Made by a program: the position numbers and the translations under genes | The notes under the pieces: model-generated | What the model saw: only the letters and a program-made list of their open reading frames with translations | Told to the model about the DNA's origin: nothing | Databases searched by the model: none | In this document: positions 23,109-37,193 of the stretch, piece after piece | Position numbering within the stretch: position 1 is the stretch's first letter | Layout of the letters: each line of letters begins with the position of its first letter | Source of the DNA: Flavobacterium sp. 9R | GTDB lineage: Bacteria; Bacteroidota; Bacteroidia; Flavobacteriales; Flavobacteriaceae | Direction of reading: 5' to 3' | Assembly: GCF_902506345.1 (NCBI RefSeq) | Contig: NZ_LR733413.1 | Location: 849,456 to 913,455, forward strand | Length of the DNA stretch: 64,000 nt

Positions 23109-24548
23109 TTAATGTCCTCCAGCAATTTTCTTATCAAAATCTATGCCTTGAGCTCTAAGGATTCCACTAACTCTCCAAGCATAAAAAGCTAAGTAAGCAA
23201 AACATAGAATTCCAACAATATAACTTTCTTGTATTCCGATTCCTTCAGCTACTTTACCTTGTAATACACTGATAAAACCACCACCCATAATCATCATAAT
23301 CAAGAAACTACTTCCTTGGCTAGTGTTTTTTCCGAGTCCACTTACTGCTAAAGTAAAGATACAAGGCCATAACGTACTACAAAACAAACCAACGCTTGTG
23401 AAAGCATAAACACTTATCATTCCACTTGTTGTCATTCCTATAGCTGTCGCTATTATTCCAAGCGTTGAAAAAATCAATAACATTCTAGCTGGGTTTCCTT
23501 TACTGGCCATATCAGCAGCAATAAGAACTATAATTACTAATCCGTAAATGTAGAAAGGAGTCAAGTCGTGTTTCGCAATTGCGTTTACACCTAAAAACAC
23601 ACCAAAAGCTAGGTAAGGCGCGATAAATCTCAATATTTTTTGCCAACTCATATTGTCTGTAAAAGCTTCAACAGCTCCTGTCCAACGACCAATCATCAAA
23701 CTTGCCCAATATAAAGAAATGTATGGTGCTACATCTTTAGTTAAAAAGCCTAATTTGCTTTCCATATAAGCTGGTAAGTTACTTGCTGTAGAAACTTCAA
23801 CTCCTACATACAAGAAAATTGCAATCATACCCATTACTAACTGAGGGTATTGCAAAGCTGATTTTTTTGCAAGAACTCCATCGTGAGCTTCTGTTTCTTC
23901 AACCAAAGCAGGTTTGTCTGGTAAAGATGAAAATTTTAGAAGTATTGCTACTAACAAGAATGCAACACCTAATACTAAATAAGGAATTTTTACACTTTCG
24001 ATACTTGCACTTGTATTGGCATTTGTACTTGAACCGAAAATAGCAAAACTAACAATAAGCGGCCCAATTGTTGTTCCTAAATTGTTTATTCCACCCGCTA
24101 AAGTAAGACGTTGTGAACCTGTTGTGATGGGACCTAAAGCAATTGCAAGAGGATTAGCAACAGTTTGTTGCAATGAAAAACCTAAACCAACAATAAAAAG
24201 ACCAGCGAGCATTAAAGGAAAAGAACCTGTATTCGCTGCTGGATAAAATAAAAGGGTTCCTAACGCAGAGATTAATAGTCCTAAAGAAAGACCATTTTTA
24301 TAGCCGATTTTGTTTACTAAATCTTCTTTGATTGCTACGGAAACTCCCATATAGATCAATGAGCCTACGGTGTAAGCAATATAAAATGCAAAAGCAACTA
24401 ATTGGCTTTCACCTTGTGATAAATTGAATGCGGTTTTGAAAACAGGGATTAAGATGTCATTACTTGCAGCGACAAATCCCCAAAAGAAGAAGACAGTTAC
24501 TAGGGGAATAAATTGCCCCCAATTGGTTTTTAAATTTTCAGAATTCAT
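23109..24548 (-). CDS. MFS sugar transporter (FucP/NagP/GluP family)
   Basis: The 479-residue inner-membrane protein begins with FIPLVTVFFFWGFVAASND and has about 12 membrane segments, the pattern of the fucose/glucose/N-acetylglucosamine permease family. The neighbouring chitin genes point to N-acetylglucosamine or chitobiose-derived sugar as substrate (NagP-like), which is inferred from context. Its promoter carries the same 21-bp-spaced motif as susC and the nagB fusion, which supports co-regulation with the chitin locus. It is separated from the response regulator gene by 170 bp and is transcribed in the same direction. Confidence 0.9.
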   Translation of the reverse strand: MNSENLKTNWGQFIPLVTVFFFWGFVAASNDILIPVFKTAFNLSQGESQLVAFAFYIAYTVGSLIYMGVSVAIKEDLVNKIGYKNGLSLGLLISALGTLLFYPAANTGSFPLMLAGLFIVGLGFSLQQTVANPLAIALGPITTGSQRLTLAGGINNLGTTIGPLIVSFAIFGSSTNANTSASIESVKIPYLVLGVAFLLVAILLKFSSLPDKPALVEETEAHDGVLAKKSALQYPQLVMGMIAIFLYVGVEVSTASNLPAYMESKLGFLTKDVAPYISLYWASLMIGRWTGAVEAFTDNMSWQKILRFIAPYLAFGVFLGVNAIAKHDLTPFYIYGLVIIVLIAADMASKGNPARMLLIFSTLGIIATAIGMTTSGMISVYAFTSVGLFCSTLWPCIFTLAVSGLGKNTSQGSSFLIMMIMGGGFISVLQGKVAEGIGIQESYIVGILCFAYLAFYAWRVSGILRAQGIDFDKKIAGGH

Positions 24549-24598: not shown

Positions 24599-24606
24599 TA
24601 AATGTA
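24599..24606 (-). promoter_or_regulatory. -7 promoter element of the MFS sugar transporter gene
   Basis: The minus strand reads TACATTTA, one base from TAnnTTTG and of the same TAnnTTTA form as susC. It lies exactly 59 bases downstream of the first G of the GTTGGT half-site. Confidence 0.6.
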
Positions 24607-24638
24607 TTTCTTAACTAACAGATAAAAAAATTATTTCG

Positions 24639-24670
24639 ATGAAAAATCAATACTTTTAAACCAACAGCCT
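24639..24670 (-). promoter_or_regulatory. Putative LytTR operator upstream of the MFS sugar transporter gene
   Basis: The minus strand reads GTTGGT (first G at 24665), ten bases, then TGATT (TGA at 24649-24647) and TTT. The half-sites lie 21 bp apart. The second half-site is weaker than those at susC and nagB, but phase and distance to -7 (59 bases) are identical. Confidence 0.6.
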
Positions 24671-24718
24671 GTTTTTTTCTACAAAAAGCTAATTTTTAAA
24701 TTTATAAAAAGTAAGATT

Positions 24719-25426
24719 TTAATCTAATATCTTACTCTTCACTTCTTTACTGTAATTTCGGCCAATTGGTAATGTGTAAGAAGTGATTTGTATTCTATTT
24801 CCTTCAATAGTTTTTACTTTATCTAAGGCGATGGTGAAGGATTTGTGAATTCGAATAAAACGTTCTTCGGGGAGTTCTTCAGTCAATGAAGAAAGGGATT
24901 TATGCGTGATATAGGTTTTTTCTGGAGTTACCACTTTGATGTATTCTTTCATTCCCTCGATAAAAAGAATCTCATCAATGTTAATCTTAACCATTTTTTT
25001 ATCGACTTTGATAAAAATATGAGGTTCTACACGATGACTGTCTTGTTTGGAAATCATTCGGTTTTGAAACTCACCAGTTATTTTCGAAATACATTTTATA
25101 AAACGTGGTAATGGTATGGGTTTAACCAAATAATCTAAAACGTCTAAATCATAACTTTCTGCAGCAAATTCTCGGAAGGCAGTGGTGATTATAATTTTGG
25201 TATTCGATTTGTTTTTGTACAATTGAATCAATTCAAAACCTGACATTAAAGGCATATTAATGTCAAGAAATAAGGCATCGATAGTATTGTTGTTCAAAAA
25301 GTCAAGTGCCTCTATAGAATTATTGAAGGTGCCAATAATTTCAAACTCAGGAAAATTTTGAAAATAATTTAGCAAAACCTTAATCGCTAACGGTTCATCA
25401 TCAATCAATACGCACTTAATCTTCAT
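24719..25426 (-). CDS. LytTR-family response regulator
   Basis: The 235-residue protein has a receiver domain (1-118) with DD at 9-10, phospho-acceptor Asp55 in FLDINMP and the KPI lysine (about 107), and a C-terminal LytTR DNA-binding domain (about 135-235, with FIKVDKKMVKI, FIRIHKSF and LPIGRNY). LytTR proteins bind pairs of direct half-sites about 21 bp apart. It overlaps the sensor kinase gene by 11 bp, so the two form a two-component system. Location inside the chitin locus and the three operator-like sites suggest it activates susC, nagB and the MFS gene. Confidence 0.95.
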   Translation of the reverse strand: MKIKCVLIDDEPLAIKVLLNYFQNFPEFEIIGTFNNSIEALDFLNNNTIDALFLDINMPLMSGFELIQLYKNKSNTKIIITTAFREFAAESYDLDVLDYLVKPIPLPRFIKCISKITGEFQNRMISKQDSHRVEPHIFIKVDKKMVKINIDEILFIEGMKEYIKVVTPEKTYITHKSLSSLTEELPEERFIRIHKSFTIALDKVKTIEGNRIQITSYTLPIGRNYSKEVKSKILD

Positions 25427-26468
25427 TGCTTATAGGGATTTGTAAACGAATTATGTAGAAATTAAACTTGACTTGATGGCTTAATTGATAATCGTTTTTA
25501 AATATTAAATTCAATCTTTCTTTGGTATTGGTTAACCCAATTCCTTTTTTTGATTTTTCATGTTGTGAAAGTACAAAATTATTTATTATTTCAAAATCTA
25601 GGGTATTTTGAGAGCTAACTTTGCAATTGATTTTAATTTTTAAGTCCTTGTTGTTGATTCCTCCGTGTTTGAAAGCATTTTCAATCAAAGAAATTAATAA
25701 TAGTGGAGGGACACTTACTTGGTCAATGTTGGATTCGAGATTAATAAATACGGTTGCGTTTTCAAAACGTAATTTTTCTATTTCGATATAATTATGGATA
25801 TAGTCGAGTTCTTTTATTAAAGGAACAAATTTAGTTCCTTCTATATCATAAAGTACGTATTCCATCAAATGGGATAGTTTGATAATTACATTGGGCACTT
25901 TGTCTGAAGCTTCAAGCGAAAGTGCATACAGGTTATTTAAGGTATTAAAGAAAAAGTGGGGTTGAATTTGATTTTTCAAATATTCGAGCTTGATTTTGTA
26001 TTGGTTTTCTCTTAATATTCTGTTTCTCTCCCGTTCTCTAAGCCAAGTTAGTGTTAAGTATACAGATGATGCCATAGCTAAGACATATAGTTCTCCTATA
26101 CAAACAGCTAGAATATGATTGATTTCGAAGGGCTGATAATCTCTATTAGCTTCTGGCCAGATGTTTTTTGAAATTAAAAAATAAGTCAAACCCGTTTTTA
26201 AAATATAAATACAACCTAAACTAATTAAGAGAGCAAAAGTATAGAGTGAGTATTTTGATTTTAAAACCAATCTTGGAACCAATACGAATAGATTGAAATA
26301 CACCAATGGAATATGTAAAGCAAATTCTATTAGGTTTGATTTAAAGGAGTACTCGTAGTCATTAAAATATGCTCCCCAACGCAGAAAGTTTAATAAAAAG
26401 TACAATCCCCAAAACCAAAAATGATTCTGGATTTTGATATCGAAATTCATGTCTTTTATTTTGCTCAT
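25416..26468 (-). CDS. LytS/YehU-type sensor histidine kinase
   Basis: The 350-residue protein has four to five N-terminal membrane segments (about 15-150), then the His_kinase domain of the LytS type with NQIQPHFFFNTLNNL (phospho-accepting His about 170) and an ATPase domain with PPLLLISLIENAFKHGG and GIGLTNTKERL. No periplasmic ligand-binding domain is apparent, so the signal may be membrane or transport linked. It is translationally coupled to the LytTR gene. A TAAATTTG motif at complement(26470..26477) would place transcription start past the annotated ATG, so the Met at residue 7 (26450) may be the true start. Confidence 0.93.
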   Translation of the reverse strand: MSKIKDMNFDIKIQNHFWFWGLYFLLNFLRWGAYFNDYEYSFKSNLIEFALHIPLVYFNLFVLVPRLVLKSKYSLYTFALLISLGCIYILKTGLTYFLISKNIWPEANRDYQPFEINHILAVCIGELYVLAMASSVYLTLTWLRERERNRILRENQYKIKLEYLKNQIQPHFFFNTLNNLYALSLEASDKVPNVIIKLSHLMEYVLYDIEGTKFVPLIKELDYIHNYIEIEKLRFENATVFINLESNIDQVSVPPLLLISLIENAFKHGGINNKDLKIKINCKVSSQNTLDFEIINNFVLSQHEKSKKGIGLTNTKERLNLIFKNDYQLSHQVKFNFYIIRLQIPISNED

Positions 26469-26614
26469 ACAAATTTATGGTTGGAAAGTATTATGATGAT
26501 TACTTTTGTCTTTTTTTCTTTGAACATGCAACTTTAATCATTTTGTCAATAAAAACAAGCTTTTTCGAGTAAAAAAGGAAGTAAAAACAGAAAAGCTAAT
26601 AAATTACAAAACAA

Positions 26615-26626
26615 GAAAACGTTTTC
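26615..26626. promoter_or_regulatory. Perfect 12-bp palindrome, LacI-type operator candidate
   Basis: GAAAACGTTTTC is the classic half-site pair of LacI/GalR-family regulators, with a central CG. It lies 25 bp upstream of the LytTR site and 126 bp before susC. No LacI-family gene is in the window, so the regulator is unknown. Confidence 0.4.
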
Positions 26627-26650
26627 GCAAAACATATTATTGAACAAAAG

Positions 26651-26682
26651 ATGTCGTTGGTTTAAAAAAAGTGACTGTTGGT
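26651..26682 (+). promoter_or_regulatory. Putative LytTR operator upstream of susC
   Basis: GTTGGT at 26656-26661 repeats at 26677-26682, 21 bp on, with TGAC immediately before the second copy. This is the best of three such sites. The -7 candidate TAAGTTTA lies at 26715-26722, 59 bases from the first G. Confidence 0.7.
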
Positions 26683-26714
26683 ATAATTTATTTTTTTTAA
26701 CAATCCCTTAAGGA

Positions 26715-26722
26715 TAAGTTTA
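26715..26722 (+). promoter_or_regulatory. -7 promoter element of susC
   Basis: TAAGTTTA differs from TAnnTTTG at the last base. It lies 30 nt before the ATG at 26752 and has no TTG -33 box at normal spacing, which fits an activator-dependent promoter. Confidence 0.55.
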
Positions 26723-26751
26723 CATCATAACTAACAAATACATTTAAAAAA

Positions 26752-29700
26752 ATGAAACAAATTTTATTAATCGTTATGATTATTTTTGCTTCGCAACTCT
26801 CATTTGCGCAAGTAAAAACGCTCAAAGGAACGGTAGTGGATGGTAGCGGTGCTCCAATACCTGCTGCTAATGTTCAAGTACAAGGAGAGTCAAATGGAAC
26901 ATCAACTGATTTTGATGGAACTTTTACTATCAAAGTGAATAAAGGAAAAACCTTAATGGTAACTTACTTGGGTTACGAATCAAAATCAGTAGTAGTTGGT
27001 GATGAAGATACAATTAAAGTGATTTTGAAAAGTGAATCTACTACTGCATTGACTGAGGTAGTAGTTACATCATTAGGTATTAAGAAAACTAGAAAATCTA
27101 TTACTTATGCCGCTCAAGAGTTGAAAGGAGAGGAATTCACAAGAGTAAAAGATGCTAACATTATTAATACTGTAGCTGGTAAAATTGCCGGTGTTGCTGT
27201 AACAAGAAGTTCAGGTGGAACTGGTGGATCAACTAAAGTAGTTATTCGTGGTAACTCTTCTGTAAGTAACAACCAACCGTTATATGTTATAGATGGTATT
27301 CCTTTGTACAATGGTACTTCAGGTCAGCCAAACAATGCTTTTGGTGATACTGCAGGAGGAAATCGTGATGGTGGTGACGTAGTTTCTTTGATTAATCCAG
27401 ATGACTATGAGGGAATGACTGTATTGAAAGGTGCAGCGGCTTCTGTATTGTATGGTTCTCAAGGAGCAAATGGTGTTGTGTTGTTATCAACTAAAAAAGC
27501 TAAACAAGGAAAATCTCAATTAAAAGCTTCTTCTGTAACAACTTTTGAGTCTGCAGCATTTTTGCCAAAATTCCAAAGTGATTATGCAGCTGTTGCTGGT
27601 GGTGAAGAAACTTGGGGAGCTAAGCAAAAAGTAAATGATCACGTAAAAGGTTTCTTTGAAACAGGAAGTACTCAAATTTCATCATTGAATTTTACAACTG
27701 CTTCTGATGTAGCTTCTACTTCATTGTCTTATTCTAATACTACAGCATCAGGAATTATTCCTGGAAACGGTTTAAAACAAAATAACTTTGGTTTCCGTCA
27801 GTCTGGTAAATTATTTGATAAAGTAACAGTTGCTGCTAATGCAAACTATACAACTAGAACAGTAAACAACAGACCAGTAAATGGTTTATACTTTAACCCA
27901 TTGACAGGTGTTTATTTAATGCCAAGAGGGAATGATTTTAACGATTATAAAAAGAATTTCGAAGTATTTGATCCAGTTAGAAATATGTATGTTCAAAATT
28001 GGATGACTGATAGAGATATTATGCAAAATCCATTTTGGGGAATCAACAGAAATCAATCAGAAGATACAAATAACTTCTTCAATGGAAACTTAGCTTTAGA
28101 TTATAAAGCTACAGATTGGTTGTCTATTGCAGCAAGATATAGCTATAATAGAATCGAAAGTGGATTTACAAAAGAAATTTTTGCTACTACTCAAGGTACA
28201 TTATCTCATATCAATGGTAGATATATTGATATTAACAACTTAAGTACACAACGTTATGGTGATTTGATTGCTACTATCAATACAAAATTCAATGATGACT
28301 TTAGTTTTAATGCTAACATTGGTACAAGTATTACTAATACTTTGGCAAACAAAAGAACAACATTAGATTCAGGAATTGGTGGAGGTTTGCAAATCGCTAA
28401 CTGGTTCACATTAGGAAACTTTGTAAATAATGCTTTGAACTTACAAACAGTTGATTCAAGAAAAGAAGTACAATCTGTTTTTGCAGCTACAACTTTAGGT
28501 TACAAAGAGATGTTATTCTTGGACTTAGCTGCTAGAAATGACTGGTCATCAACATTGGCAAATACTGATAATACAGGGTTTTTCTATCCATCTGTTGGGG
28601 TAACGGCTATTCTTAGTGAAATGGTAAAAATGCCAGATTTCATCAATTATGGTAAAGTTCGTGCTACTTATGCTCAAGTAGGTAATGATATTTTTCCATT
28701 CGTAACTTCACCAACTTACGGTTTTACAGCTGAAGGTAATAAACCAGCAACAGTTGCTCCACAACCTGGAACTTCTTTACGTCCTGAGTTAAAATCAGAG
28801 ATTGAGATTGGTACAGAGTGGAGAATGTTTGACAGTCGTTTAGGATTTGAATTGTCTTACTATAATTCAGATACAAAACACCAATATTTACAAGTTTTAG
28901 CTCCACCAACAAATCCATTAGGAGTTAAATATTACGGAATTAATGCTGGAAGTATTTCTAACAAAGGTTTTGAAGCAGTAGTTACAGGAAAAATCATCAA
29001 AGGAGATAAGTTCTCTTGGGATGCAACAGTAAACTATTCTAAAAACATCAACAAAGTTGAAGAAATTCCTGCTGAATTAGGAGGAAAAGTAATTTTGACA
29101 GAAGCTGGAGTGAATAACTACAGATATGTTTTACAACAAGGTAAACCATTTGGTGTTATTGAAGGTGTAAACATTAAGAGAGATGCACAAGGTAGAGTAC
29201 TTTTAAATGCTGACGGAACTATTCAAAAAACAGAATTTGAAGAAGTAGGTAATTCTAATCCTGATTTTATGTTGGGTTTTTCTAACTCATTTAAAGTTGG
29301 TTCTTTCTTTGCAAATGTATTGATTGATGCTAGATTTGGAGGAGATGTAATGAGTTTGACAGAAGCAACAAATGATGAGTTTGGAGTTTCAAAAGCAACG
29401 GGCGATGCTAGAAATGCAGGTGGTGTAACTATTAATGCGGTTTACCCTGATGGAACAGCCTATGCAGGTAAATATCCTGCAGAAAGTTATTACAAACAAG
29501 TTGGTGGTAGAGCTGGAGCAACTGGAGAATATGTATATGATGCTACAAATGTAAGTTTAAGAGAGGTTTCTATTGGATATACATTCAATACTAAAAAGTT
29601 ACCATTTTTACAATCTGCAAGCTTGTCTTTAATTGCTAGAAACTTAGGATTTATCTACAAAGATGCTCCTTTTGATCCAAACATTTCATTAAGTACTGGT

Positions 29701-29778
29701 GAAGGTTTACAAGGTATAGATGTTTATGGAATGCCATCTACAAGAAGTATCGGTCTTAACTTAAACGTAACTTTCTAA
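26752..29778 (+). CDS. SusC/RagA-family TonB-linked outer-membrane transporter
   Basis: The 1008-residue protein has a signal peptide (1-19), a carboxypeptidase-regulatory-like domain (about 22-105, with [18 protein letters not shown]), a plug domain with [15 protein letters not shown] and [11 protein letters not shown] (about 120-250), and a beta barrel ending with aromatic LNLNVTF. It would import chitin oligosaccharides with its SusD partner at 29789, judged from the adjacent GH18, GH20 and NagB genes. Ten bases separate it from susD. Control by the LytTR system is proposed from the operator just upstream. Confidence 0.96.
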
Positions 29779-29788
29779 TTAAAAAAAC

Positions 29789-31369
29789 ATGAAACTAAAT
29801 ACAATTAAAAAAACAGCTATTTGTGTTTCCTTACTCGCAGCAGTAAGTTGCACAGACAATTTTGAGGAAATTAATACCAATCCAACGGGTATTACTGAGG
29901 CACAATACGAACAAGATTTTAATAATATCAAAGGTGCTTTTGCTCCAATGTTTAACAATATTATTGTCTTGACTCCAGAATGGAAATACCAAGTTCAACA
30001 AGGACTTCAAGGAGATATTTGGTCTGGTTATATGGCGACTGGAACTGCCTTTAGAGGAGGTACAAACAATACTACTTATGACTTAGTAGATGGTTGGAAT
30101 GGTTTTGCTTGGGGTGCTGCTTACGGTGACGTAATGTACAATGCTTATTCAGTAGAGCAAAAAGCAAAAGGGAAATACGATCAATTCTATGCTTTAGCTT
30201 TAATTTTGAAAGTAGAAGGAATGCATAGAATTACGGATACCTATGGTCCAATTGTGTATTCTAAATTTGGTACTACAGACAAAACAATTGAGTACGATTC
30301 ACAAGAAGAAGTGTACAACTTGATGTTCAAAGAATTAGATTTTGCAGTTACCGATTTAACAAAAAGAGTTGACGCAGGAGAAGCTTCTACATTTACAACT
30401 ACTGATTTGACTGCTTACAAAGGGGATTACAAAAAATGGGTAAAATTTGCTAACTCTTTACGTTTGCGTTTAGCCATGCGAATTGTGAAGAAAAATCCAA
30501 CTTTGGCTAAAGCTGAATCAGAGAAGGCTTTGGCACATAAATTCGGTGTGATGACTACTAATGATGATATCTTCAAAGTAGTTTCTCCAAACTTTACTAA
30601 TCCAATTGCTACTATTAGTGGTGCTTGGGGAGATATCAGAATGTCGGCAGATATGGAGTCAATTATGGGAGGATATGAAGATCCAAGACTTCCTGTGTTT
30701 TTCAAAACATCTGCACAGTTTCCTGGGCAATTCAAAGGTGTTAGAACTGGTATCGAAATTGCAGCAAAAGCTGATCACGTAGATTTTTCTGAGATTGGAC
30801 CAATCGTTAATTCTAAAGAAATTGTATTAATGACAACTGCTGAAGTTTATTTATTAAGAGCTGAAGGAGCATTAAGAGGATGGAATATGGGAGGAACAGC
30901 TCAAAGTTTGTATGAATTAGGAATCACAAACTCTTTTGCTCAACATGGAGTTTCAGGTGTGGCTGCTTACATTGCTGATAATGCTAAAACAGCCAAAGAT
31001 TATGTAGATCCAAATTTCCCAGTAAATAATGGAGCTGCACTAAATAAAGTTACTGTTGCTTGGGATGCAGCTACTTCTAATGAAGTGAAATTGCAAAAAA
31101 TTATCACTCAAAAATGGATTGCTGGTTTCCCAGAAGGACAAGAAGCTTGGTCTGAGTACAGAAGAACAGGTTATCCAAAATTGTTACCTGTACTTAAAAA
31201 CACTAGTGGAGGAAAAATATCTACTGCTTTAGGTGTACGTAGAGTAAACTTCGTGCAATCTGAAAAAGATGGTAATGCTGGTGGTGTTGCTACAGGTTTA
31301 GCAAAACTGGGTGGACCTGATACAGGTGGAACAAGATTGTGGTGGGATACTACAGGACCTAACTTTTAA
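29789..31369 (+). CDS. SusD/RagB-family surface glycan-binding lipoprotein
   Basis: The 526-residue protein has a lipoprotein signal (lipobox AVSC, Cys21) followed by NFEEINTNPTGIT, typical of SusD-like proteins of the RagB type, and helical TPR-like repeats such as YALALILKVEGMHRITDTYGPI, cited as a region near residues 135-160. It should sit on the outer face of the outer membrane as a lid on the SusC barrel and bind oligosaccharides. Its 3' end is followed by two consecutive hairpins. Substrate assignment to chitooligosaccharides comes from context. Confidence 0.95.
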   Translation: MKLNTIKKTAICVSLLAAVSCTDNFEEINTNPTGITEAQYEQDFNNIKGAFAPMFNNIIVLTPEWKYQVQQGLQGDIWSGYMATGTAFRGGTNNTTYDLVDGWNGFAWGAAYGDVMYNAYSVEQKAKGKYDQFYALALILKVEGMHRITDTYGPIVYSKFGTTDKTIEYDSQEEVYNLMFKELDFAVTDLTKRVDAGEASTFTTTDLTAYKGDYKKWVKFANSLRLRLAMRIVKKNPTLAKAESEKALAHKFGVMTTNDDIFKVVSPNFTNPIATISGAWGDIRMSADMESIMGGYEDPRLPVFFKTSAQFPGQFKGVRTGIEIAAKADHVDFSEIGPIVNSKEIVLMTTAEVYLLRAEGALRGWNMGGTAQSLYELGITNSFAQHGVSGVAAYIADNAKTAKDYVDPNFPVNNGAALNKVTVAWDAATSNEVKLQKIITQKWIAGFPEGQEAWSEYRRTGYPKLLPVLKNTSGGKISTALGVRRVNFVQSEKDGNAGGVATGLAKLGGPDTGGTRLWWDTTGPNF

Positions 31370-31382
31370 TTTTTTTAAAAAG

Positions 31383-31420
31383 GGAATAAGTAATTTTTAC
31401 ATTACTTATTCCTTTTTATT
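31383..31420 (+). terminator. First hairpin after susD
   Basis: GGAATAAGTAAT (31383-31394) pairs with ATTACTTATTCC (31401-31412) across a 6-nt loop, followed by a T-rich tail. Confidence 0.8.
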
Positions 31421-31422
31421 AC

Positions 31423-31475
31423 AAATTGCATAATTTATATTTTGCTGTACTATATAAATTATGCAATTTTTTCTT
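31423..31475 (+). terminator. Second, longer hairpin after susD
   Basis: An 18-bp perfect stem, AAATTGCATAATTTATAT (31423-31440) with its complement at 31452-31469, encloses an 11-nt loop and is followed by TTTTTCTTCC. Together with the first hairpin it makes a double stop between susD and the nagB promoter. Confidence 0.65.
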
Positions 31476-31579
31476 CCTTTTTTGGTAGTGTTAAGAAGAA
31501 ATTGAAAAACAATTTTATATTGAATAAATGAGGTTTTTCTGAAATATAGATACCAAAAACGCACTTTATTGACTAAATA

Positions 31580-31611
31580 ATGTCGTTGGTATATAAACTC
31601 TGACCGTTTGT
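31580..31611 (+). promoter_or_regulatory. Putative LytTR operator upstream of the nagB fusion gene
   Basis: GTTGGT at 31585-31590 and GTTTG at 31606-31610 are 21 bp apart, with TGAC before the second. The flanking bases (ATTGA upstream, ATGTC before the first half) match the susC site. Confidence 0.65.
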
Positions 31612-31643
31612 TTTTTTTATTTTTTTGCGACAAATAATAGGCC

Positions 31644-31651
31644 TACATTTG
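31644..31651 (+). promoter_or_regulatory. -7 promoter element of the nagB fusion gene
   Basis: TACATTTG is an exact TAnnTTTG match, 59 bases from the first G of the GTTGGT half-site. TTTG at 31624-31627 could be the -33 box. The leader to the ATG is about 150 nt. Confidence 0.65.
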
Positions 31652-31806: not shown

Positions 31807-33744
31807 ATGAAAAATGCTTTAGAGATAAAACCGGATATTAGTTACAAAAGTGCTGGTAAATTTGAAGAAACTAGATTTGAAAAAATTCATAACGAAATTT
31901 TTAAAAATTCAGTTGAAGCCTCAAAAATTGTAGCCGAAGAAATTGCCACTTTGATTAGAACCAAACAAGAAGAAAACAAAAACTGTGTTTTAGGTCTTGC
32001 AACAGGTTCTTCACCGATAAAAGTATACGAAGAGTTGGTTCGTATGCATAAAGAAGAAGGCTTAAGCTTTAAAAATGTGATCACTTTTAACTTGGATGAA
32101 TATTATCCAATGAACAAAGAAAGCAAGCAGAGCTATCACTATTTTATGCATCAACATCTTTTCAATCATATTGATATTCATCCAGATAATGTTCATATTC
32201 CAGATGGAACCGTAGCTATCGATGAATTGAATCAATACTGTATTGATTATGAAATGAACATTAAAAATGCAGGAGGTCTTGATTTTCAATTACTAGGAAT
32301 TGGTCGTACAGGTCACGTTGGTTTTAATGAGCCAGGATCGCACATCAATTCAGGTACTCGAATCATTACTTTGGATCATATTACTAGAGTAGATGCATCT
32401 TCTGATTTTAACGGAATTGCAAATGTTCCAAAACGTGCAATTACTATGGGAGTTTCAACCATTATGCGTTCTAAACGTATCGTTTTATTGGCATGGGGGC
32501 AAAATAAAGCGGACGTAATCAAAAGAACCATTCAAGGTGAGATTAGTTCAGAAGTACCTGCGACTTTTTTGCAAAATCATCCTAACGCAACATTTGTTTT
32601 GGATCAATCGGCTGCTTCTGCACTAACTCGTTTTGAAACGCCTTGGTTAGTAGGGGAATGTATTTGGAATCAAGAACTAAAAAGTAAAGCGATTGTTTGG
32701 TTGTGCCAAAAAACAAATCAGTCTATTTTAAAACTTACCGATAGAGATTACAACAACAACGGTATGTCTGACTTGTTAGCGCAAGAAGGATCAGCTTATG
32801 ATTTGAATATTAACATGTTCAATGTATTGCAGCATACCATTACAGGTTGGCCTGGAGGAAAACCAAATGCGGATGATGCACACCGACCAGAAAGAGCTAA
32901 TCCAGCTAAAAAGAGAGTGATTTTATTTAGCCCTCACCCAGATGATGATGTGATTTCAATGGGAGGTACTTTTGCTAAATTAATCAAGCAAGGACATGAA
33001 GTTCATGTAGTATATCAAACTTCAGGAAATATTGCTGTAACCGATGATGAGGCCTTGAAATTTGCAGAAGTATGTAATGATTTTGTTGGAGAAGATAGTA
33101 GTAAAATTAATTTCCAAGCCGTAATTGATTTCTTAAAAAATAAGAACGACAATCAAATCGATTCTTTAGAAGTTAGAAAATTAAAAGGTCTAATTAGAAG
33201 AAGAGAATCGTATGCAGCAGTGCGTTACATTGGGTTGAAAGATGAAAATGTTCACTTCTTGGATTTGCCTTTTTACGAAACTGGTCAGGTAAAGAAAAAC
33301 CCGCTTGGAACTGAAGATATTGAAATTGTAGCTGATATCATCGCTAAAATTAAACCGCATCAAGTTTTTGCAGCTGGAGATTTAGCTGATCCACACGGAA
33401 CTCACGAAGTATGTTTGAATGCAATTTTTGCCGCTTTGAAACAATTAAAAGGTAAACCTTATATGAAAGATTGTTGGTTGTGGTTATACAGAGGGGCTTG
33501 GCACGAATGGGATTTACACGAAATTGATATGGCTGTTCCTTTAAGTCCAGACGAAGTATTGTTAAAACGACAAGCGATTTTATTCCACCAATCTCAAAAA
33601 GATCGCGTGATGTTCCAAGGTAATGACTCAAGAGAATTTTGGGTACGTGCTGAAGACCGCAATAAAAATACTGCCAAGTTATACGATGATTTAGGGTTAG
33701 CAGAATATGAAGCTATCGAGGCGTTTAAACGATTTGACTATTAA
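31807..33744 (+). CDS. nagB: Glucosamine-6-phosphate deaminase fused to a PIG-L/LmbE deacetylase domain
   Basis: The 645-residue protein has an N-terminal NagB domain (about 20-300: ATGSSPIKVYE, FNLDEYYP about 95, GRTGHVGFNEPGS about 167), which converts glucosamine-6-phosphate to fructose-6-phosphate and ammonia, and a C-terminal PIG-L/LmbE deacetylase domain (about 370-640) with zinc motif SPHPDDD (His377) and DPHGTHE (about 530). The second domain could remove acetyl from a GlcNAc derivative, supplying substrate to the first. No separate NagA is in the window. Fusions of this type are known in Bacteroidota. The reaction of the PIG-L half is inferred. Confidence 0.92.
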   Translation: MKNALEIKPDISYKSAGKFEETRFEKIHNEIFKNSVEASKIVAEEIATLIRTKQEENKNCVLGLATGSSPIKVYEELVRMHKEEGLSFKNVITFNLDEYYPMNKESKQSYHYFMHQHLFNHIDIHPDNVHIPDGTVAIDELNQYCIDYEMNIKNAGGLDFQLLGIGRTGHVGFNEPGSHINSGTRIITLDHITRVDASSDFNGIANVPKRAITMGVSTIMRSKRIVLLAWGQNKADVIKRTIQGEISSEVPATFLQNHPNATFVLDQSAASALTRFETPWLVGECIWNQELKSKAIVWLCQKTNQSILKLTDRDYNNNGMSDLLAQEGSAYDLNINMFNVLQHTITGWPGGKPNADDAHRPERANPAKKRVILFSPHPDDDVISMGGTFAKLIKQGHEVHVVYQTSGNIAVTDDEALKFAEVCNDFVGEDSSKINFQAVIDFLKNKNDNQIDSLEVRKLKGLIRRRESYAAVRYIGLKDENVHFLDLPFYETGQVKKNPLGTEDIEIVADIIAKIKPHQVFAAGDLADPHGTHEVCLNAIFAALKQLKGKPYMKDCWLWLYRGAWHEWDLHEIDMAVPLSPDEVLLKRQAILFHQSQKDRVMFQGNDSREFWVRAEDRNKNTAKLYDDLGLAEYEAIEAFKRFDY

Positions 33745-33841: not shown

Positions 33842-35914
33842 ATGAAATACCTTTTTATACTGTTTTTTGTAACATTAGCTACGACAGCTCAAGTTAGCAA
33901 TGAGTCTTTAAATTTAATGCCTTGGCCGCAAAAAATTGAATTAAAGTCTGGAAATTTTGCTTTAAATTCATCTTTTAAAGTAAACGTTACTGGGCAACCT
34001 AATTCGAGAATTTTTGTAGCTACTTCTAATTTTTTAAGACGATTGGATGGTAGAACTGGGTTGTTTTTTAAGCAAGGTTTTGTGACTTCAACCAATGAAT
34101 TTCCTGATGCACAGTTGCAAATCAATTGTGTAAAAGCTGGAAAAATTGGCTTGTATGAAGATGAAAGTTATCAATTGACGATACAATCGAATACAATTTC
34201 AATCAATGCTTCCTCAGATTTAGGTGCGATGCATGGATTGGAAACTCTTTTGCAATTGCTTCAAAATAATGCTACTTCTTTCTATTTTCCTAACGTAACC
34301 ATAACAGATATGCCTCGTTTTACTTGGCGTGGACTAATGATTGATGCTGCAAGACATTTTCAACCTGTTGATGTTATTAAAAGAAACTTAGACGCTATGG
34401 CTGCTATGAAAATGAATGTTTTTCATTGGCATTTGGTAGACGATCAAGGTTGGAGAATAGAAATGAAAAAGCATAAAGTGCTTACAGATAAAGCTTCTGA
34501 TGGCCTTTTTTACACTCGAGAAGAAATTAAAGGTATCGTAAAATATGCTGCTGATAGGGGTATCCTTGTGGTACCTGAAATTGATGTGCCTGGTCATGCT
34601 TCTGCAATTTTAACAGCTTTTCCAGAAATAGGAAGTAAAGTTGTGACGATAAATAAAGGATCTTCTGAAACTACGCAGAAAGCTTCAGGTCTAGTAACGT
34701 ATTCGTTAGAGAGAAATGCAGGTATTTTTACACCTACATTAGACCCTACTAATCCAAGAACCTATCAGTTGTTAGGTGAAATTTTTGATGAAGTTTGTCC
34801 ATTGTTTCCTGGGAAATATTTCCACATTGGTGGTGATGAAAACGAAGGCAAAGATTGGGATGCTAATCCTAAGATTCAGGAATTTATGAAGAAGAATAAG
34901 TTAGCCAACAATCATGAATTGCAGACTTATTTTACCATGCAGTTAATTCCGATGTTAAAAAAGCATAAGAAGGAATTGATGGGGTGGGAGGAAATAATGA
35001 CCAAAAACATGTCCAAAGAAGCCATTATTCATTCTTGGAAAGGACCAAACGAAGGTGTAGCTGCTGGTGGTTCATTGATTGCAGCTGCAACAAATGGTTA
35101 TAAAACAGTTTTGTCCAATGGTTTTTATGTGGACTTGGTTCAAGGAGTTGAGAATCATTATTTGAATGATCCAATGCCTAAAAATGCCTCACTTTCATCA
35201 GAAGATAAAGCTAGAATTTTAGGAGGCGAAGCTACCATGTGGAGCGAATTGGTTACTCCCGAGACAATTGATTCTAGACTTTGGCCAAGAACTGCCGCTA
35301 TTGCTGAAAGACTTTGGTCTGATGCTAATGTAACGGATTTGGCAAGTATGCGAAAAAGATTGAAAGTCATTTCTTTTCGATTGGAAGAATTAGGAATTAC
35401 GCATATAAAAAATAAAGAAGTGTTGTTAAGAAATATCAGTAACAACCAAAATACAACTGCTTTGCAAACTTTTTCAGCAGTTTGTGAACCTTTAAAAATT
35501 TATTCCCGTAATGCGGGAGGAACAGAATATCAAATGTATTCTCCGTTTACTTTGTTTGCTGATGCTTGTACTCCTGATGCTGAAGATGCATTGGTTTTTA
35601 ATGGATTGGTTGAAGAATATGTAAAAAATAAAGAAGTATCATCAGAGAAAGAGATTGCTTTATTTTTAAACAAATGGATACAAAATCATAAAGAATTAGA
35701 GGTGTTAAGTCAAAATGCGCCATTGGTACAACCTCTTTTACCTTTATCCAAAGCATTGCAAGACATTTCAGAACAATTGCTTTATAAGTTGCAAAAGAAT
35801 TCTAGTTATAACGCTGTTACAGCGAAAGAGTTATTAGAAAAATGCAACTCCAAAGCACACGCAGATGTTGAATTGGCGGTTTATTTAGGATTAAAAAAAA
35901 TGGTAGAATTATAA
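33842..35914 (+). CDS. Beta-N-acetylhexosaminidase (GH20)
   Basis: The 690-residue protein has a signal peptide (1-16), a GH20b N-terminal domain (about 20-155), and the catalytic barrel (about 158-510) with RGLMIDAARHF, FHWHLVDDQGWR and HIGGDENEG, where Asp332-Glu333 are the catalytic pair. A helical extension of about 170 residues follows. It cleaves terminal GlcNAc from chitooligosaccharides, probably in the periplasm since there is no type IX sorting domain. It lies 97 bp after the nagB fusion on the same strand and may share its promoter. Confidence 0.94.
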   Translation: MKYLFILFFVTLATTAQVSNESLNLMPWPQKIELKSGNFALNSSFKVNVTGQPNSRIFVATSNFLRRLDGRTGLFFKQGFVTSTNEFPDAQLQINCVKAGKIGLYEDESYQLTIQSNTISINASSDLGAMHGLETLLQLLQNNATSFYFPNVTITDMPRFTWRGLMIDAARHFQPVDVIKRNLDAMAAMKMNVFHWHLVDDQGWRIEMKKHKVLTDKASDGLFYTREEIKGIVKYAADRGILVVPEIDVPGHASAILTAFPEIGSKVVTINKGSSETTQKASGLVTYSLERNAGIFTPTLDPTNPRTYQLLGEIFDEVCPLFPGKYFHIGGDENEGKDWDANPKIQEFMKKNKLANNHELQTYFTMQLIPMLKKHKKELMGWEEIMTKNMSKEAIIHSWKGPNEGVAAGGSLIAAATNGYKTVLSNGFYVDLVQGVENHYLNDPMPKNASLSSEDKARILGGEATMWSELVTPETIDSRLWPRTAAIAERLWSDANVTDLASMRKRLKVISFRLEELGITHIKNKEVLLRNISNNQNTTALQTFSAVCEPLKIYSRNAGGTEYQMYSPFTLFADACTPDAEDALVFNGLVEEYVKNKEVSSEKEIALFLNKWIQNHKELEVLSQNAPLVQPLLPLSKALQDISEQLLYKLQKNSSYNAVTAKELLEKCNSKAHADVELAVYLGLKKMVEL

Positions 35915-36104: not shown

Positions 36105-37193
36105 ATGAAAGATTGTAAATTTTTAATTGTTTTCCTTTTGTTTTCTCTTTTTGCTGCAGCACAAAAGCATAAAGATTTTTCTGTGATTGCCTACTATACT
36201 GGCGATAATAAGCAAATCGATACTTATGATGTTAAAAAATTGACTCATATTATTTATAGCTTTTGTCATTTAAAAGAGGGAAAATTAAATGTTGATACGG
36301 CTAAAGATTCAGCTGCAATTAAGCATTTGGTTTCTCTAAAATCAATAAACCCAAAGCTAAAGGTGATGCTTTCTCTTGGAGGTTGGGGAGGTTGTGAACC
36401 TTGTTCGGAAGGCTTTGATTCAGCTGAGAAAATTGCTGTTTTTGCAAAGTCCGTACAAGAAGTAAATACCTATTTTAAATGTGATGGATTGGATTTAGAT
36501 TGGGAGTACCCTACAATAGAAGGTTTTCCTGGACACAAATTTCAACCTCAAGATAAATCAAATTTTACAGCTCTTGTAGTTGCCTTACGTAATGCTTTAG
36601 GACCAAAAAATGAACTGAGTTTTGCCGCAGGTGGGTTTATGAAGTATTTGAAAGAAGCTGTAGATTGGAAAGCGATTATTCCGTTGGTAGATAGAGTAAA
36701 TATTATGAGCTATGATTTAGTAAATGGCTATGCCGTCGTAACAGGTCACCATACGCCTTTATATAGTTCTAGAATAGAAGACGAATCAACAAACAAAGCT
36801 GTTGACTACCTTTTAAAGTTGGGTGTACCAGCTAAAAAACTTGTTATTGGGGCGGCTTTTTATACTCGTATTTGGAAAGATGTCGCTTCTATCAATAGCG
36901 GTTTGTATCAATCAGGTGCCGCTACAAACGGAATAGATTTTAAAGATTTTGAAACTAAATTAACTAAGGAAAAAGGCTGGAATTATTTTTGGGACGAGAA
37001 AGCTCAAGCTCCTTATTGGTACAATGAAAAAGAGCAATTGTTTGCAACTGGCGATGATCTTAAGTCGGTAGCAGTTAAAACAAACTATGTTATTAAGAAG
37101 AAGCTTGGTGGAATCATGTTTTGGGAATTGATTTTGGACAAAAACCAAGACGGAATGGTAGAAGCGATTGATAAAGTAAAACGAATCAATTAA
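36105..37193 (+). CDS. Chitinase (GH18)
   Basis: The 362-residue protein has a signal peptide (1-19, ending FAAAQ) and a GH18 barrel with LMLSLGGWGG-like SLGG motif (about 88) and DGLDLDWEYP (127-136, catalytic Glu134 in DxxDxDxE). No carbohydrate-binding module and no T9SS C-terminal domain is present, so it is a compact enzyme of the envelope or periplasm rather than a large surface chitinase. It ends with KVKRIN. It would cut chitin or its oligomers to substrates for the GH20 enzyme. A terminator separates it from GH20, so it needs its own promoter, which I could not fix. Confidence 0.93.
   Translation: MKDCKFLIVFLLFSLFAAAQKHKDFSVIAYYTGDNKQIDTYDVKKLTHIIYSFCHLKEGKLNVDTAKDSAAIKHLVSLKSINPKLKVMLSLGGWGGCEPCSEGFDSAEKIAVFAKSVQEVNTYFKCDGLDLDWEYPTIEGFPGHKFQPQDKSNFTALVVALRNALGPKNELSFAAGGFMKYLKEAVDWKAIIPLVDRVNIMSYDLVNGYAVVTGHHTPLYSSRIEDESTNKAVDYLLKLGVPAKKLVIGAAFYTRIWKDVASINSGLYQSGAATNGIDFKDFETKLTKEKGWNYFWDEKAQAPYWYNEKEQLFATGDDLKSVAVKTNYVIKKKLGGIMFWELILDKNQDGMVEAIDKVKRIN

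What the first reader, a model, noticed from the sequence alone, without database searches (positions are those of the whole stretch)
24599..31651. Three chitin-locus promoters share a LytTR-type operator at a fixed distance from -7
susC (26651-26722), the nagB fusion (31580-31651) and the MFS sugar transporter (complement 24599-24670) each carry GTTGGT-N10-TGA, with the second half-site 21 bp after the first. In all three the first G is exactly 59 bases upstream of the first T of TAAGTTTA, TACATTTG or TACATTTA. Paired half-sites two helical turns apart are the known mode of LytTR domains, and the locus encodes a LytTR response regulator with a LytS-type kinase. The three sites define a candidate regulon and show that the MFS gene, on the other strand, belongs to it. 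Identical spacing in three places is hard to get by chance.
Basis: partly seen in the sequence, partly recalled or inferred. Interest (0 to 1): 0.85.

Follow-up and report, generated by a model that had tools for sequence, protein, structure and literature searches.

The report
Conserved operator of the chitin regulator
A short repeated DNA switch sits at one exact distance in front of the chitin-use genes of Flavobacterium and some relatives, and it goes together with one two-component regulator, so it is very probably that regulator's landing site.

Summary
The sites are real and far above chance. GTTGGT-N10-TGA occurs three times in the window; with a -7 element 55-63 bases on, it occurs nowhere else in the 3.58 Mb genome. 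The locus matches the Flavobacterium chitin utilization locus, whose CusS/CusR pair is genetically required for chitin growth in F. johnsoniae (PMC5127042). In 60 relatives' loci plus the window, a half-site pair (TGYYGTTKGT, 21 bp apart) anchored 59 bp from -7 precedes susC in 57 of 57, nagB in 20 of 56 and MFS in 43 of 54; reversed sequences give 2, 0 and 1. A composite pattern hits 107 of 130 genomes with a CusR ortholog and 4 of 268 without; reversed control zero. Paralogous LytTR regulators have other half-sites but the same 21/59 geometry. Corrections: the TGA is incidental; MFS lacks the +21 half-site and has one at -21, so its repeat lies one unit further upstream. Likely mechanism: CusR binds the repeat and activates RNA polymerase, like AgrA. 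Binding is not shown.

The parts
26652..26661 (+). susC promoter, half-site 1 (TGTCGTTGGT), first G at 26656
   Evidence: 15/15 by half-site score; site present in 57 of 57 SusC promoters
26673..26682 (+). susC promoter, half-site 2 (GACTGTTGGT), 21 bp after half-site 1
   Evidence: 13/15
26631..26640 (+). susC promoter, degenerate third half-site at -21 (AACATATTAT)
   Evidence: 6/15 in the window; mean PWM over 57 promoters -12.2 at -21 against -30.0 at -22 and -35.7 at -20
26615..26627 (+). LacI-like palindrome GAAAACGTTTTCG upstream of the susC operator
   Evidence: core AACGTT at exactly -38 in 42 of 57 SusC promoters; in 1 of 20 nagB and 1 of 43 MFS promoters; four other exact places in the own genome
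26691..26698 (+). susC promoter T-tract over the expected -33 position
   Evidence: conserved column block in the three promoter classes
26715..26722 (+). susC promoter -7 element TAAGTTTA, 59 bp after the first G
31581..31590 (+). nagB promoter, half-site 1 (TGTCGTTGGT), first G at 31585
   Evidence: 15/15; 20 of 56 NagB promoters have the pair, all 20 at 59
31602..31611 (+). nagB promoter, half-site 2 (GACCGTTTGT)
   Evidence: 13/15
31560..31569 (+). nagB promoter, degenerate third half-site at -21 (CGCACTTTAT)
   Evidence: 9/15; local PWM peak at -21
31644..31651 (+). nagB promoter -7 element TACATTTG
24660..24669 (-). MFS promoter, half-site at register 0 (GGCTGTTGGT), G at 24665; here the promoter-proximal half-site
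   Evidence: 14/15
24681..24690 (-). MFS promoter, distal half-site at -21 (AGCTTTTTGT)
   Evidence: 12/15; in 42 of 43 MFS promoters the -21 half-site outscores the +21 one
24639..24648 (-).
   Evidence: 8/15
24599..24606 (-). MFS promoter -7 element TACATTTA
24719..25426 (-). CusR-like response regulator (receiver + LytTR)
   Evidence: Pfam PF00072 and PF04397; match in 132 of 398 genus genomes at E<=1e-70, 130 after leaving out two with only a paralog
25416..26468 (-). CusS-like histidine kinase (PF06580)
   Evidence: Pfam
26752..29778 (+). susC-like TonB-dependent transporter, target
   Evidence: Pfam Plug, CarbopepD_reg_2
29789..31369 (+). susD-like lipoprotein, just downstream of susC
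   Evidence: Pfam PF12741
31807..33744 (+). NagB-PIG-L fusion, target
   Evidence: Pfam PF01182 and PF02585
33842..35914 (+). GH20, downstream of nagB
   Evidence: Pfam PF00728
36105..37193 (+). GH18, downstream of GH20
   Evidence: Pfam PF00704
23109..24548 (-). MFS sugar transporter, target (same place as Fjoh_4565, needed for growth on chitin, GlcNAc and glucose in F. johnsoniae)
   Evidence: Pfam PF07690; PMC5127042 section 6

Best explanation
The three sites are operators of the LytTR response regulator CusR (24719-25426), partner of the kinase CusS (25416-26468). Inferred steps: CusS responds to chitin breakdown products and phosphorylates CusR; a CusR dimer binds two half-sites (TGYYGTTKGT) on one face of the DNA, 21 bp (two helical turns) apart; at susC and nagB the promoter-proximal half-site ends about 9 bp before the -33 position, where a T-tract stands in place of the usual -33 letters, so RNA polymerase starts well only when CusR touches it. 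The centre of the repeat lies about -60 from the expected transcription start. The MFS operator is the same repeat one unit (21 bp) further upstream. The spacing from the register-0 half-site to the -7 element, 59 bp, is fixed. The regulon in this genome is susCD, nagB with GH20 and GH18 behind it, and the MFS sugar importer: uptake across both membranes plus breakdown.
For: By computation here: (1) anchored site (half-site pair, 59, TAnnTTT) before SusC 57 of 57, NagB 20 of 56, MFS 43 of 54 in 60 relatives' loci plus the window; the same regions reversed give 2, 0, 1 and reverse-complemented 1, 0, 0. In 56 named loci, partly the same species, SusC 71 of 72, NagB 9 of 32, MFS 46 of 54, reversed control 2, 0, 2. 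(2) Where nagB is the first gene beside the regulator genes it has the site in 8 of 8 loci, and of 55 GH20 promoters only the one where GH20 is first (L120) has it. (3) Over 398 genomes the looser pattern is in 122 of 130 CusR+ and 51 of 268 CusR- genomes; of 150 listed rows 103 of 119 in CusR+ genomes lie at exactly 59, against 4 of 31 in CusR- genomes; the composite pattern is in 107 of 130 against 4 of 268, reversed control 0. (4) In G204 the MFS gene is on another contig than cusR and still has the site. (5) F. johnsoniae CI04 has it before both cusC genes; Cloacibacterium rupense (CusR 66%) before susC and nagB and a Bacteroidia MAG (52%) before susC, all at 59. (6) LytTR paralogs have other half-sites in the same geometry, 5 of 5 loci. 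(7) CusR has the LytTR motif FhRhHRS as FIRIHKS. (8) AgrA repeats are centred near -60 (PMC4227749) and LytTR repeats tend to lie 10 bp above -35 (PMC6193735); here about -60, taking TAnnTTTG as -12 to -5 (PMC9723704), and 9 bp. Genetics by others: deleting cusS-cusR abolishes growth on chitin and ChiA, a plasmid copy restores growth and ChiA (PMC5127042).
Against: No binding or expression data for any site. 21-bp-period direct repeats also belong to AraC-type hybrid regulators in Bacteroides (PMC3878776), so the period alone does not prove LytTR. G036, 99% complete and with no CusR match at E<=1e-70, keeps the site before its MFS gene. Of 29 scorable nagB promoters in CusR- genomes, 3 pass the score threshold of 24 and 2 more score 22, all five with -7 at 59; by eye their letters differ from the CusR type. 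36 of 56 nagB and 11 of 54 MFS promoters fell below threshold; 10 of those 11 MFS hits are only 27-51% identical to the window's MFS, one is 88%. 8 of 130 CusR+ genomes missed the looser pattern: six have substituted sites at 59, one (G298) has the half-site pair with a -7-like element only at 54, one (G046) has cusR cut by a contig end and was not examined. Most relatives belong to one genus, so counts are not independent.
Confidence: 0.87

Rival explanations
1. Another regulator, for example an AraC-type hybrid two-component system or a SusR-like protein, binds the repeats, and CusS/CusR acts indirectly.
For: HTCS and SusR motifs in Bacteroides are direct repeats too, some with a 21-bp period (16-bp sites with 5-bp spacer, 12-bp sites with 9-bp spacer; PMC3878776). 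G036 has the MFS site without a detected CusR ortholog.
Against: Tight co-occurrence with CusR; LytTR paralogs of CusR at other loci go with other half-sites in the same geometry; no AraC-type regulator among the 16 ORFs scanned between 16729 and 40545. I did not scan the relatives' loci for AraC-type genes.
Confidence: 0.07
2. The block is a general architecture of SusCD or strong promoters in Flavobacterium, not a specific operator.
For: T-tract and -7 element are ordinary promoter features.
Against: In the own genome the composite pattern has the three sites at 0, 0 and 1 mismatch and the other seven at 3 mismatches, against 4 reversed-control hits; CusR- genomes rarely have it (4 of 268).
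Confidence: 0.03
3. The susC promoter is mainly controlled by a LacI-type regulator at the conserved palindrome, with the LytTR site as a minor input.
For: AACGTT at exactly -38 in 42 of 57 SusC promoters; the own genome has 5 LacI matches, two of them about 10 kb from another exact palindrome that precedes a SusC-like gene at a GH13/GH32/GH65 locus.
Against: The palindrome core is missing in 15 of 57 SusC promoters and in nearly all nagB and MFS promoters, while the LytTR site is in all 57; the cusSR deletion alone abolishes chitin growth (PMC5127042). With one mismatch the palindrome is rarer in the own genome than its reversed control, 27 against 78.
Confidence: 0.05

Closest known systems
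CusS/CusR two-component system of the F. johnsoniae chitin utilization locus (PMC5127042; passages and section 6 read)
   Same: MFS, cusR, cusS, susC/susD, nagB and GH20 together; CusR 77% identical between window and F. johnsoniae CI04; sites before both cusC genes of CI04 at 59
   Different: The main text of the paper holds neither 'promoter' nor 'LytT', so I take it that no binding site is given; the window has one susC/susD pair and a separate nagB promoter
AgrA/ComE-type LytTR direct-repeat operators (PMC4227749 and PMC6193735; passages read)
   Same: Two direct half-sites, 9-12-9 layout with 21-bp period, repeat centre near -60, about 9-10 bp above the -33/-35 position; FhRhHRS-type motif
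   Different: Bacteroidota promoter (TAnnTTTG type), T-tract at -33, fixed 59 spacing, extra half-site at -21, second register at MFS; a polymer-use regulon
LRS-like LytTR operons of Bacteroides (PMC6193735, Table 3 passage)
   Same: LytTR direct repeats in front of a Bacteroidota promoter
   Different: 11-bp repeats with 11-bp spacer (22-bp period) and other letters; regulators with membrane segments, presumed autoregulation. Here no site precedes cusS (0 of 54 named loci; 1 weak score in 58 of the other loci plus window)
HTCS and SusR regulons of Bacteroides (PMC3878776; passages read)
   Same: Direct repeats in front of SusC/SusD operons, some with 21-bp period
   Different: AraC-type DNA-binding domain in a hybrid protein (HTCS); none found among the window ORFs scanned

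Membership tests
LytTR-type operator | Two direct half-sites about 21 bp apart (9-12-9) | tested here: met
   susC and nagB at 0/+21, MFS at -21/0
LytTR-type operator | Half-site fits the consensus [TA][AC][CA]GTTN[AG][TG] (consensus recalled, from no call) | tested here: inconclusive
   by eye: nagB half-site 2 ACCGTTTGT fits fully, susC half-site 2 misses one position, the register-0 half-sites miss two of nine
LytTR-type operator | Lies just upstream of -35/-33, an activating position | tested here: met
   about 9 bp above the -33 position at susC and nagB, fixed 59 to -7, compared with PMC6193735; one repeat unit further at MFS
LytTR-type operator | Bound by a LytTR protein | not testable with these tools
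   needs EMSA or footprinting
Chitin utilization locus with CusS/CusR | Regulator pair beside susC/susD, chitinolytic enzymes, nagB and MFS | tested here: met
Chitin utilization locus with CusS/CusR | Expression depends on CusS/CusR | not tested
   shown by others for ChiA in F. johnsoniae (PMC5127042), not for the window's genes
LytTR response regulator | Receiver plus LytTR domain with FhRhHRS motif | tested here: met
   PF00072 and PF04397 over cut-off; FIRIHKS, K in place of R
HTCS/SusR operator | Cognate AraC-type hybrid or SusR regulator in the locus | tested here: not met
   none among 16 ORFs scanned by Pfam between 16729 and 40545

The most novel reading that the evidence does not exclude
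CusR-type regulators read a three-half-site array on a 21-bp ruler (-21, 0, +21). Which neighbouring pair is good sets the promoter class: 0/+21 at susC and nagB, -21/0 at the monosaccharide importer. The ruler and the 59-bp spacing are frozen across paralogs whose half-site letters have diverged, and a LacI-type operator locked 38 bp upstream adds a second input at susC only. If so, regulons of many unassigned LytTR regulators in Flavobacteriia could be read from sequence.
Probability: 0.4. Interest if true: 0.65.

Novelty: new member of a known kind. Interest (0 to 1): 0.5.

Why it matters
CusS/CusR is the genetically proven switch of a well-studied chitin-degrading locus, but no DNA target turned up in the papers I searched. 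This gives a testable operator, a regulon and a geometry (21-bp repeat, 59 bp to -7) that paralogous LytTR regulators share, so targets of other LytTR systems in Flavobacteriia might be predicted from sequence. It also gives a defined candidate inducible promoter for these bacteria.

Tried and rejected
Literal motif GTTGGT-N10-TGA as the operator: rejected, TGA is incidental. Second half-site at +21 for MFS: rejected. A wider regulon in the own genome: scans with 2 and 3 mismatches gave, beyond the known sites, only hits at the level of the reversed control (one hit with 1 mismatch was not followed). Site before cusS (autoregulation): none above threshold in 54 named loci, and 1 weak score (L123) among 58 in the other set. 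Solved structures: the LytTR part matches AgrA only weakly (E about 0.8) and 3d6w at 0.002, so no contact mapping was attempted; no structure was predicted. Non-chitin matches of the looser pattern: L189, L194, L197 and L198 looked like chance by eye; L190/L191 lie before kinase-like genes and L195/L196 before 950-aa sensor-like proteins (named by eye). The Urechidicola-like MAG L268 has a CusR homolog (50%) and nagB, but I saw no site. A family-level search (93 of 349 genomes with a match at E<=1e-65) was not analysed further. Of the 80 named loci, L211-L266 were scanned by script, L241, L263 and L267-L283 were scanned with the pattern, ten were read by eye, and L284-L290 were not used.

Papers: terms around CusR, LytTR, chitin, Flavobacterium, PUL and regulon listed no paper that I recognised as giving a CusR binding site; most listed papers were seen as listings only, passages were read in PMC5127042 (plus its section 6), PMC6193735, PMC4227749, PMC9723704, PMC3878776 and PMC10197871. 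The library lacks most subscription journals; one search was left unused.
Full report
OBSERVATION. GTTGGT-N10-TGA is found three times in the window against 0.41 expected, 0 of 100 shuffles reaching three. The bare motif occurs 34 times in the 3.58 Mb genome, but with TANNTTTR at N36-44 only these three remain, reversed control 1. The distance from the first G to the T of the -7 element is 59 in all three.

CONTEXT. Pfam gives MFS_1 (23109-24548), receiver plus LytTR (24719-25426), His_kinase PF06580 (25416-26468), susC (26752-29778), susD (29789-31369), a NagB/PIG-L fusion (31807-33744), GH20 (33842-35914) and GH18 (36105-37193). This resembles the Flavobacterium chitin utilization locus. In F. 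johnsoniae, deletion of cusS-cusR abolishes growth on chitin and ChiA, with rescue by plasmid; loss of the MFS gene Fjoh_4565 abolishes growth on chitin, GlcNAc and glucose (PMC5127042, section 6).

PHYLOGENETIC FOOTPRINT. Of 398 genomes of the genus 132 have the regulator at E<=1e-70; two of these, G025 and G074, have only a paralog (53 and 51%) and were set aside, leaving 130. I fetched 60 loci of 60 of the 132 genomes, chosen by me for spread (one, L131, is the G025 paralog). With the window they hold 57 SusC, 56 NagB and 54 MFS hits. Choosing the best half-site pair without use of the -7 element, 57 of 57 SusC and 20 of 56 NagB regions score at least 24 of 30; TAnnTTTR then lies at 59 in 53 of the 57 and in 20 of the 20; for MFS this free choice fails, since it picks the -21/0 pair (29 of 54 score 24 or more, none with the element at 59). 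With the site anchored on the -7 element (threshold 19), 57 of 57, 20 of 56 and 43 of 54 pass; reversed sequences give 2, 0, 1 and reverse complements 1, 0, 0. Regions with a single half-site of at least 13/15 have the element at 59 in 52 of 57 (SusC), 20 of 20 (NagB) and 36 of 37 (MFS). The thresholds were set by me after seeing the first sequences. The same anchored test on 56 named loci, many probably the same species, gives SusC 71 of 72, NagB 9 of 32, MFS 46 of 54, cusS 0 of 54; reversed controls 2, 0, 2, 0.

THE SITE FOLLOWS THE FIRST GENE. Where nagB is the first gene beside the regulator genes it has the site in 8 of 8 loci (in three of the eight no cusS was matched); elsewhere 12 of 48, the window among them. 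Of 55 GH20 promoters one passes, L120, where GH20 stands first. In G204 the MFS gene lies on another contig than cusR and still has the site.

CO-OCCURRENCE. The looser pattern (two half-sites, N28-36, -7) is in 122 of 130 CusR+ and 51 of 268 CusR- genomes; of the 150 rows that the tool listed (275 matches in all), 103 of 119 in CusR+ genomes lie at exactly 59, against 4 of 31 in CusR- genomes, which are spread over the allowed range. Reversed-control hits of this looser pattern also occur and were not tallied. The composite pattern (half-site, T-tract, -7) is in 107 of 130 against 4 of 268, with no reversed-control match. The four exceptions: G221 (75% complete; susC-susD-nagB at a contig end), G391 (81%; MFS at a contig end), G207 (70%; the promoter of a 268-aa protein, see below) and G036 (99% complete; MFS only), the last a true exception. 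Genomes of one genus are related, so the Fisher values overstate independence.

SPECIFICITY. Of 41 genomes with NagB and no CusR match, 30 loci were given and 29 were scorable. Twenty-four show nothing with the element at 59. Five (L344-L348) do have a pair at 21 bp with -7 at 59, three of them over the score threshold of 24 (24, 24, 25) and two at 22; their letters (like CTTTTGCCGAA and GTTAGTCGAA) are of another type. In at least three of these genomes (L359-L361) a LytTR paralog (48-50%) stands beside that nagB. Paralogs of this sort (L199, L200, L359-L361) have, upstream of the gene divergent from their kinase, half-sites TGRTGTTTAG and TGTYRTCCGTCT, 21 apart and 59 from TAnnTTTA in 5 of 5 loci; the divergent gene is GH92 by Pfam in L359, by eye in L199 and L200. 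Two more loci (L187, L188) have GTTTGTCT repeats at 59, divergent from a paralog's kinase. So the letters change with the regulator and the geometry stays.

DISTANT RELATIVES. F. johnsoniae CI04 (L241) has the site at 59 before both cusC genes. Cloacibacterium rupense (L263, CusR 66%) has it before susC and nagB, and a Bacteroidia MAG (L267, 52%) before susC, all at 59. L263 susC and nagB were found by eye: the automatic test, which takes the 400 bases before the tblastn start, missed its susC. In a Urechidicola-like MAG (L268, 50%) I saw none. In L272 and L275, which have paralogs, a pair at 21 bp lies 59 before a TAnTTT-like element.

ANATOMY. Combined half-site counts give TGYYGTTKGTWTAA. 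A third half-site is suggested at -21: in all three promoter classes the matrix score at -21 stands far above that at -20 and -22; at susC two other offsets (-17, -14) score as well or slightly better, at nagB two (+30, +25) marginally better, so there it is weak, while at MFS it is the clear second-best. At MFS the -21 half-site beats the +21 one in 42 of 43 promoters, the window included. A T-tract covers the -33 position in all classes. At susC a palindrome (core AACGTT) lies at exactly -38 in 42 of 57 promoters and in 1 of 20 nagB and 1 of 43 MFS promoters. Exact copies in the own genome include one just before a SusC-like gene and one 14 kb on, at a locus with GH13, GH32 and GH65, about 10 and 24 kb from two LacI genes, which suggests a LacI-type operator; this is inference, and the pattern is not enriched genome-wide over its reversed control.

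MECHANISM. Shown here: sequence, spacing, conservation, co-occurrence. Shown by others: need for CusS/CusR. Inferred: binding, dimer on one face, contact with RNA polymerase, signal. The geometry fits known LytTR activators: AgrA repeats centred near -60 (PMC4227749, passages), LytTR repeats mostly with 12-bp spacers and a bias to 10 bp above -35 (PMC6193735, passages). With TAnnTTTG at -12 to -5 (PMC9723704, passages) and a 19-bp gap from -33 to -7 as in the Bacteroides example of PMC6193735, the susC and nagB repeats are centred near -60 and end 9 bp above the -33 position.

RIVALS AND NOVELTY. Direct repeats with a 21-bp period are also known for AraC-type hybrid regulators in Bacteroides (PMC3878776, passages), so the period is not diagnostic; the co-occurrence and the paralog swap are what point to LytTR. 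I file it as a new member of a known kind: a LytTR operator, with unusual constancy of spacing and two registers.

Noticed in passing
26615-26627: Palindrome GAAAACGTTTTCG, LacI-operator-like, core at a fixed -38 from the LytTR half-site in 42 of 57 SusC promoters; exact copies at a sugar locus about 10 and 24 kb from two LacI genes in the same genome.
   Followed up: partly
L182-L186, L396: The same operator with 59 spacing outside the chitin locus, before a gene for a 268-aa protein without Pfam match (six genomes, among them G207 without a detected CusR); in L186 a TonB-dependent receptor and a DUF4249 protein follow.
   Followed up: partly
L199, L200, L359-L361: Paralogous LytTR regulator and kinase beside a nagB paralog and divergent from a GH92 gene (Pfam in L359 only), with other half-sites but the same 21/59 geometry.
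   Followed up: partly
L344-L348: nagB paralogs with yet another half-site pair (GTTAGTCGAA type) at 21/59; which regulator reads it is not known.
   Followed up: partly
L190, L191: GTTGGTCGA-type direct repeats 60 and 59 bp from TACCTTTA before a kinase-like gene (named by eye): a possible autoregulated LytTR system of another type.
   Followed up: no
L395 (G036): A 99% complete genome without a CusR match at E<=1e-70 keeps the operator, with a clear GTTGGT at -21, before its MFS gene (86% identical): another regulator may read it.
   Followed up: no
G000:C1:3243567-3243633 (L350): One further match in the own genome with a single mismatch to the two-half-site pattern; not looked at.
   Followed up: no
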